64,000 bases of DNA from a virus: positions 1 through 64,000 of IMG/VR virus record IMGVR_UViG_3300047483_000537; one strand, given 5' to 3'. Positions 9,496-9,812 of this stretch are shown piece by piece. The first letter of the stretch is position 1; the number at the start of each line of letters is the position of its first letter. The position numbers were made by a program, and so were the translations under genes. The notes below the pieces were generated by a model. That model saw nothing but the letters and a program-made list of their open reading frames with translations. It was not told the DNA's origin and ran no database searches.

Positions 9496-9812
9496 TGAAG
9501 CAAAAAGAAAAGAGTTCTGGACGGCGGTTCGAATCCGCCCAGCTCCACCATAAGCACGTGTCTTAGATGAAAGAAACCTCTGAGGGCTCTAATGGGGCGT
9601 GCTTTTGATGGGGCTGCATTTGGTTTCGACAGGGTTACAAGTAAACGAGTGGACAACTAGGTAATGCAGAAGCCTTAGGATTGGGGTTGTTCCCAGTCGC
9701 AGAAGCACAACAAAAATAAACGCAAACGATCAAGTTTACGCTTTAGCAGCTTAATTGCCGCTTAGGGTTTTGTCAGTTTTTCCTCGTAACAGAATAAAGC
9801 TGACCCTAATTT
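9496..9812 (+). ncRNA. ssrA: Circularly permuted (two-piece) tmRNA
   Basis: The 3' half comes first: T-arm GGCGG-TTCGAAT-CCGCC (9523-9539), CAGCTCC, A and CCA (to 9550). A removable segment of 59 nt contains AAGCACG/CGTGCTT. The 5' half then starts with GGGGCTG (9610) and the tmRNA D-loop signature TTGGTTTCGAC. GGGGCTG pairs with CAGCTCC over 7 bp, giving the G3-U70 pair read by alanyl-tRNA synthetase. The tag frame (9722-9754) encodes ANDQVYALAA and then TAA. A stem TTAGGG/CCCTAA closes the 3' end. tmRNA adds this tag to stalled nascent chains for ClpXP-type degradation. The 5' boundary is uncertain. A ClpP-like gene follows directly. Confidence 0.93.

What the first reader, a model, noticed from the sequence alone, without database searches (positions are those of the whole stretch)
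9496..9812. Circularly permuted two-piece tmRNA encoded by a phage
The acceptor half (T-arm, CAGCTCC-A-CCA) precedes the coding half (GGGGCTG, TTGGTTTCGAC). The ends pair over 7 bp with the Ala G-U pair, and the tag is ANDQVYALAA. Permuted tmRNA genes are known in some bacterial groups and rarely in phages. A phage copy could supplant the host rescue system when host tmRNA or mRNAs are damaged.
Basis: partly seen in the sequence, partly recalled or inferred. Interest (0 to 1): 0.82.

Follow-up and report, generated by a model that had tools for sequence, protein, structure and literature searches.

The report
Phage two-piece tmRNA beside ClpP
A virus of bacteria carries its own working-looking ribosome-rescue RNA (tmRNA) with its two halves encoded in swapped order, next to a gene for a protein-shredding enzyme; such viral tmRNAs are already known, but the shredder partnership and the swappable RNA inserts in its spacer appear not to have been described.

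Summary
Window 9489-9809 (+) is a circularly permuted tmRNA gene: Rfam RF04321, 115.6 bits against a cut-off of 47; ARAGORN calls tmRNA* with tag ANDQVYALAA. It lies in a tRNA array of a T5-like phage (record of 96,599 bases, no close cultured relative). Fifteen relatives keep it with strong covariation, an invariant G3.U70 alanine-identity pair and a conserved tag, so it is selected, not a stray fragment. The phage lacks SmpB and must borrow the host's. Permuted phage tmRNAs are already published (PMC9004378) and common in viral contigs, so it is a member of a known kind. Two features look undescribed. (1) A ClpP gene with intact catalytic triad starts about 17 nt downstream, in the same position in all 16 related records searched; a second, distant ClpP lies 1-3 kb downstream of the tmRNA in another phage group. 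(2) The spacer between the two halves carries a structured loop cassette that is swapped independently of the tmRNA body, and the same cassettes recur in tRNA spacers and hammerhead-like ribozymes. Function is inferred, not shown.

The parts
9489..9550 (+). acceptor piece of the tmRNA (P2 5' strand, T-arm, 3' half of acceptor stem, CCA)
   Evidence: RF04321 match 9489-9754; alignment A2; 5' end approximate
9551..9609 (+). intervening segment, expected to be removed in maturation: hairpin AAGCACG/CGTGCTT with cassette A (about 9563-9597) in its loop
   Evidence: model R2 match 9547-9609
9610..9809 (+). coding piece of the tmRNA (5' half of acceptor stem, TTGGTTTCGAC, tag, 3' terminal stem-loop with TCCTCGTAACAGAATA)
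   Evidence: 3' end inferred from the terminal stem 9763-9768/9803-9808
9722..9754 (+). tag reading frame ANDQVYALAA plus stop
   Evidence: ARAGORN; tag conserved across relatives
9379..9491 (+). CCA-anchored spacer hairpin between tRNA-Thr and the tmRNA (20-22 bp stem), with its own loop cassette S
   Evidence: inverted repeat I2; fold z-score -5.8; compensatory stems in L005, L009, L012; same loop in another phage's tRNA spacer, L399
9308..9382 (+). tRNA-Thr(TGT) immediately upstream, part of the tRNA array
9826..10413 (+). ClpP-like serine protease gene, about 17 nt after the tmRNA 3' stem; Ser-His-Asp triad intact
   Evidence: PF00574 48.1 bits, cut-off 20.2; PHROG 1827 2e-62; triad columns conserved; solved ClpP chains

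Best explanation
It is a functional, permuted (two-piece) phage tmRNA expressed from a tRNA-tmRNA-clpP cluster of a T5-like phage. SHOWN by sequence: gene order, structure, Ala-identity pair, tag, selection in relatives, ClpP directly downstream, no SmpB. INFERRED: one precursor is cut at the encoded CCA ends and 5' ends, dropping the spacer hairpins; the acceptor and coding pieces pair; host AlaRS charges it through G3.U70; host SmpB and EF-Tu bring it to ribosomes stalled on broken mRNAs during infection; the ANDQVYALAA tag sends the products to ClpX-type unfoldases, and the phage ClpP supplements or replaces the host's proteolytic chamber. The net effect would be to free ribosomes and recycle amino acids for phage production.
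For: RF04321 115.6 bits and ARAGORN. Covariation in 16 clade members: 95.9% of cells paired, 13 pairs with double changes, 0/500 shuffles; acceptor pair 4 flips GC:8/CG:7 while G3.U70 is invariant in 15 of 15 distinct rows. Tag constrained (A-N-[DE]-x-x-[YF]-[AR]-[LI]-[AV]-A) with synonymous changes. RF04321 found in all 16 clade records searched, directly upstream of ClpP on the same strand, 15 of them above cut-off. ClpP triad conserved, and the phage has a separate head-maturation protease in its capsid ORF, so ClpP is not the prohead protease. The C-terminal Ala-Ala is the key ClpXP element (PMC7652416); ALAA is required for ClpXP and ClpAP (PMC3985003).
Against: No RNA-seq, northern or proteomic data. 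No SmpB; an unfoldase was not specifically searched for in the record, so function is assumed to depend on host partners. Host unknown. Five relatives (L008, L010, L013, L015, L019) have a T-loop GGCAGTG instead of TTCGANT, unusual for a tmRNA. The ClpP link could be co-transcription for convenience.
Confidence: 0.82

Rival explanations
1. A decoy or inhibitor: the phage tmRNA competes with host tmRNA for SmpB, AlaRS or EF-Tu to block host quality control, as reported for the CDS-less tmRNA-like RNA of mycobacteriophage DS6A.
For: A phage precedent exists: the DS6A form inhibits endogenous tmRNA (PMC11915505). No SmpB in the phage. Aberrant T-loop in a sub-clade.
Against: The tag frame, including its ClpX-type end, is kept under selection, which a decoy does not need; all structural elements are intact.
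Confidence: 0.08
2. The tmRNA works as stated but the ClpP neighbour is unrelated in function: a phage ClpP that happens to sit after the tRNA array, with the tmRNA kept there as one more small RNA.
For: ClpP occurs in 1,706 phage records; in T5-like phages My1 and KEY it sits by dNMP kinase and holin with no tmRNA annotated nearby. ClpP relatives at 56-60% identity (L021-L027, L029) have no tmRNA in their loci.
Against: 16 of 16 clade records keep the pair adjacent. In tmRNA-selected records outside the clade, 12 of 15 with a ClpP have it 1.0-3.2 kb downstream on the same strand (by my estimate under 1 expected for random placement), though these share one gene order and are not independent.
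Confidence: 0.4
3. A captured host gene fragment or transduction relic without function.
For: ssrA is a common integration site, and fragments occur in prophages (PMC9004378).
Against: Complete gene, conserved through a phage clade with compensatory changes; placed inside a phage tRNA array; spacer unlike the short hairpins of the Burkholderiales examples.
Confidence: 0.03

Closest known systems
Permuted tmRNA of Methylophilales phage Melnitz and Pelagibacter phage Mosig (PMC9004378)
   Same: Phage-encoded, permuted two-piece form found by ARAGORN; Mosig hits RF04321 (93.6 bits)
   Different: Those are alphaproteobacterial-type, in pelagiphage-related myophages, with a glutamine riboswitch reported; here a T5-like phage, nearer to the beta-type model, with adjacent ClpP and a cassette-bearing spacer. 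ClpP is not mentioned in that paper
Permuted tmRNA of Stenotrophomonas phages (Menderavirus) and Xanthomonas phage Rb1
   Same: RF04321 hits 118.5 and 103.4 bits; Menderavirus shares the start GGUUGUAUGAAGC and sits among tRNAs
   Different: Different tags (VAANDDSYTVRIAA, ANDDNFRPALRLAA); no match to the window's ClpP in those loci
Betaproteobacterial permuted tmRNA (Rfam RF01850 beta_tmRNA)
   Same: Full-length alignment at 79 bits; UUCUGGAC and UUUCGACAGGG elements and ANDxxFALAA-type tags in Burkholderiales
   Different: Below the RF01850 cut-off of 84; in the Burkholderiales examples read, the spacer is a 28-33 nt hairpin, against 41-107 nt in the phages read
Double-hairpin elements of fungal mitochondria (recalled from memory, not tested)
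   Same: Short structured inserts in hairpin loops of non-coding RNAs, thought mobile
   Different: Phage DNA and other sequences; an analogy for the cassettes only

Membership tests
Circularly permuted tmRNA (Rfam RF04321) | covariance-model score above the curated cut-off | tested here: met
   115.6 bits against 47, full length 1-213
Circularly permuted tmRNA (Rfam RF04321) | acceptor half encoded upstream of the coding half, separated by a spacer | tested here: met
   CCA at 9548-9550, GGGGCTG at 9610
Circularly permuted tmRNA (Rfam RF04321) | 7-bp acceptor stem with G3.U70 and a T-arm | tested here: met
   invariant G.U in 15/15 distinct rows with double changes beside it
Circularly permuted tmRNA (Rfam RF04321) | tag reading frame ending in a proteolysis signal | tested here: met
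   ANDQVYALAA*, conserved in relatives
Circularly permuted tmRNA (Rfam RF04321) | two separate mature RNA pieces, alanylation, SmpB binding, tagging | not testable with these tools
   needs RNA and protein experiments
beta_tmRNA (Rfam RF01850) | score above cut-off 84 | tested here: not met
   79 bits, full length; so beta-like, not filed as a member
ClpP (Pfam PF00574) | profile score above cut-off and Ser-His-Asp triad | tested here: met
   48.1 bits against 20.2; triad columns conserved
ClpP (Pfam PF00574) | assembly with an AAA+ unfoldase | not testable with these tools
   needs biochemistry
Hammerhead ribozyme (L393, L379; carriers of cassette C) | CUGANGA, stem II, GAAA, stem III, GUC, stem I | tested here: inconclusive
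   all elements read by eye; Rfam type III model 24.6 bits on L393, below cut-off 48.5
YrlA Y RNA (Rfam RF02553), for the hairpin 7522-7626 | model match at the hairpin | tested here: not met
   no RF02553 match there even at E up to 5

The most novel reading that the evidence does not exclude
The spacer of this tmRNA, like those of other phage permuted tmRNAs, is a docking site for interchangeable structured RNA cassettes of roughly 35-80 nt. The same cassettes (A, B, C, S) sit in hairpin loops of otherwise unrelated phage RNAs: tmRNA spacers, tRNA spacer hairpins and, for C, stem III of hammerhead-like ribozymes. They would be a class of ultra-short mobile RNA-loop elements, or interchangeable processing/binding modules, in phage tRNA arrays.
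Probability: 0.5. Interest if true: 0.8.

Novelty: new variant of a known kind. Interest (0 to 1): 0.55.

Why it matters
Phage tmRNAs are usually listed as oddities among tRNAs. A clade-wide tmRNA-ClpP pair makes a concrete, testable claim: some phages bring both the tag and the shredder, leaving SmpB and the unfoldase to the host. The swappable cassettes, if confirmed, would be a new kind of short element in viral non-coding RNA, and would give a handle on how permuted tmRNA precursors and phage tRNA arrays are processed.

Tried and rejected
Prohead protease role for ClpP: rejected, the capsid ORF (record 68316-70244, outside the window) carries its own protease domain. Y RNA reading of the 9379-9491 hairpin: considered because a Ro60 gene lies upstream; no YrlA match there, and its loop instead recurs as a cassette. 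Cassettes A and C in cultured phages: no match. Cassette D pattern: one hit only, no second context. Further copies of A and C in 51 sources searched with models: none beyond those known. Host assignment: unsuccessful; the terminase is about 50% identical to Vibrio phages of T5 type, the tmRNA is beta-like. Structure prediction was not used: ClpP membership was clear by profile.

Full report
WHAT IS THERE. The window is bases 1-64000 of a virus record of 96,599 bases. Its genes look T5-like: NAD-dependent ligase, DnaB-like helicase, primase, DNA polymerase, SbcCD, exonuclease, and a terminase about 50% identical to Vibrio phages of about 113-118 kb. Between 7831 and 13474 lies a loose array of tRNA genes. 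At 9489-9809, right after tRNA-Thr, lies a permuted tmRNA: RF04321 115.6 bits, ARAGORN tmRNA* with tag ANDQVYALAA. A ClpP gene starts at 9826.

IS IT FUNCTIONAL. Sixteen tmRNAs of the phage clade were aligned. With a structure taken from the Rfam alignment plus stems read by eye, 95.9% of cells pair, 13 of 41 pairs change on both sides, and no shuffle of 500 reaches this. The structure was drawn on the window's sequence, which favours it against slid controls; the double changes are the stronger evidence. The fourth acceptor pair is GC in 8 and CG in 7 rows, while the third pair is always G.U. Tag codons vary in the middle and by synonymous changes, while A-N-[DE] and the hydrophobic C-terminus are kept. 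Three of 15 tags end in ALVA.

PARTNERS. No SmpB was found in this record or in 50 other tmRNA-bearing viral records. ClpP (PF00574; PHROG 1827) has its Ser-His-Asp triad. In 16 clade records RF04321 and ClpP are adjacent on the same strand, tmRNA first; one tmRNA (L028) is below the family cut-off. Thirty-four further records over 20 kb, chosen by tmRNA only, gave 15 with a ClpP, 12 of them with it 1.0-3.2 kb downstream on the same strand; those carry a different ClpP (about 30% identical) and share one gene order (tmRNA, sometimes a GroES-like gene, small genes, SleB-like hydrolase, ClpP; gene names here are my reading of the translations). So there are two distinct phage groups with the link, not many independent events. 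No paper found in the held library describes the link; that library lacks most subscription journals.

SPACER. In the Burkholderiales permuted tmRNAs read, the spacer is a plain hairpin of 28-33 nt (four clear examples). In phages it is a conserved outer stem (about AAGCATA/TATGCTT, then TGAT) with a large, variable inner part; 114 distinct spacers fall into 55 clusters. Inner-part identity is nearly uncoupled from tmRNA-body identity (Spearman 0.12 over 6,216 pairs): bodies 55-60% identical can share an 86-98% identical insert, and bodies 93-95% identical can have unrelated ones. The pairs are not independent and the viral contigs are not a random sample.

CASSETTES ELSEWHERE. The window's spacer holds cassette A. 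In viral contigs and loci held, its pattern gave 100 places: 74 tmRNA spacers, 9 tRNA-CCA spacer hairpins, 17 that look like chance coding matches (some loci overlap). Cassette C, 28 places: 18 tmRNA spacers, 6 after a tRNA CCA, 2 in stem III of hammerhead-like ribozymes, 2 other hairpins. Cassette B, 10 stretches: tmRNA spacers and a hairpin before a tRNA. Cassette S, the loop of the hairpin 9379-9491 upstream of the window's tmRNA, recurs in a differently stemmed hairpin before a tRNA-Glu in L399. Because loci were fetched by exact patterns, conservation inside those patterns (alignments A1 and A3) is partly by construction; the changing contexts and compensatory changes in the flanking stems are not. 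No Rfam family other than tRNA and tmRNA covers these hairpins in the window at the gathering score. What the cassettes do is not known. Options: a binding site for a processing enzyme, a protective fold, or selfish short elements that use harmless loops as landing sites. The hammerhead context argues against cleavage being their only role.

KNOWN OR NEW. Permuted phage tmRNAs are published (PMC9004378: 53 two-piece forms among 133 distinct phage tmRNAs; PMC11915505: 79 bacteriophage sequences in the tmRNA database). The gene is therefore a member of a known kind. The conserved ClpP partnership and the exchangeable spacer make it, in my judgement, a new variant. Function remains inferred throughout.

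Noticed in passing
window 6152-7462 and 7522-7626: TROVE/Ro60-vWA protein gene followed by a strong hairpin (22-nt arms) that is kept, with compensatory changes, after the Ro gene in clade relatives: a candidate phage Ro-Y RNA pair not matched by Rfam YrlA.
   Followed up: partly
L008, L010, L013, L015, L019 (alignment A2): Sub-clade of permuted phage tmRNAs with T-loop GGCAGTG instead of TTCGANT, together with a changed D-loop region (AGGATCGAC), while acceptor stem and tag stay intact.
   Followed up: no
L393 1405-1530; L379 about 11660-11780: Hammerhead-like ribozymes in phage contigs (L379 within a tRNA array) whose stem III loop is filled by the same cassette C that fills tmRNA spacers.
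   Followed up: partly
L036, L040, L068, L086, L134 and similar: Aquatic phage group with order tmRNA, optional outer-membrane-like and GroES-like genes, small lysine-rich gene, 91-aa MSNMTPFEIRLELLKMAKDML protein, SleB-like hydrolase, ClpP.
   Followed up: partly
window 10420-10507: Sub-threshold selenocysteine-tRNA-like match just after clpP (35.9 bits, cut-off 47).
   Followed up: no
window 7755-7818: Degenerate tRNA-like match (23.6 bits, cut-off 29) at the start of the tRNA array.
   Followed up: no
window 8555-9022: Small RNase H-like protein (PF04308, PHROG 11311) encoded inside the tRNA array.
   Followed up: no
L401 near 10020-10052: Two tandem copies of cassette B at the end of the held stretch.
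   Followed up: no
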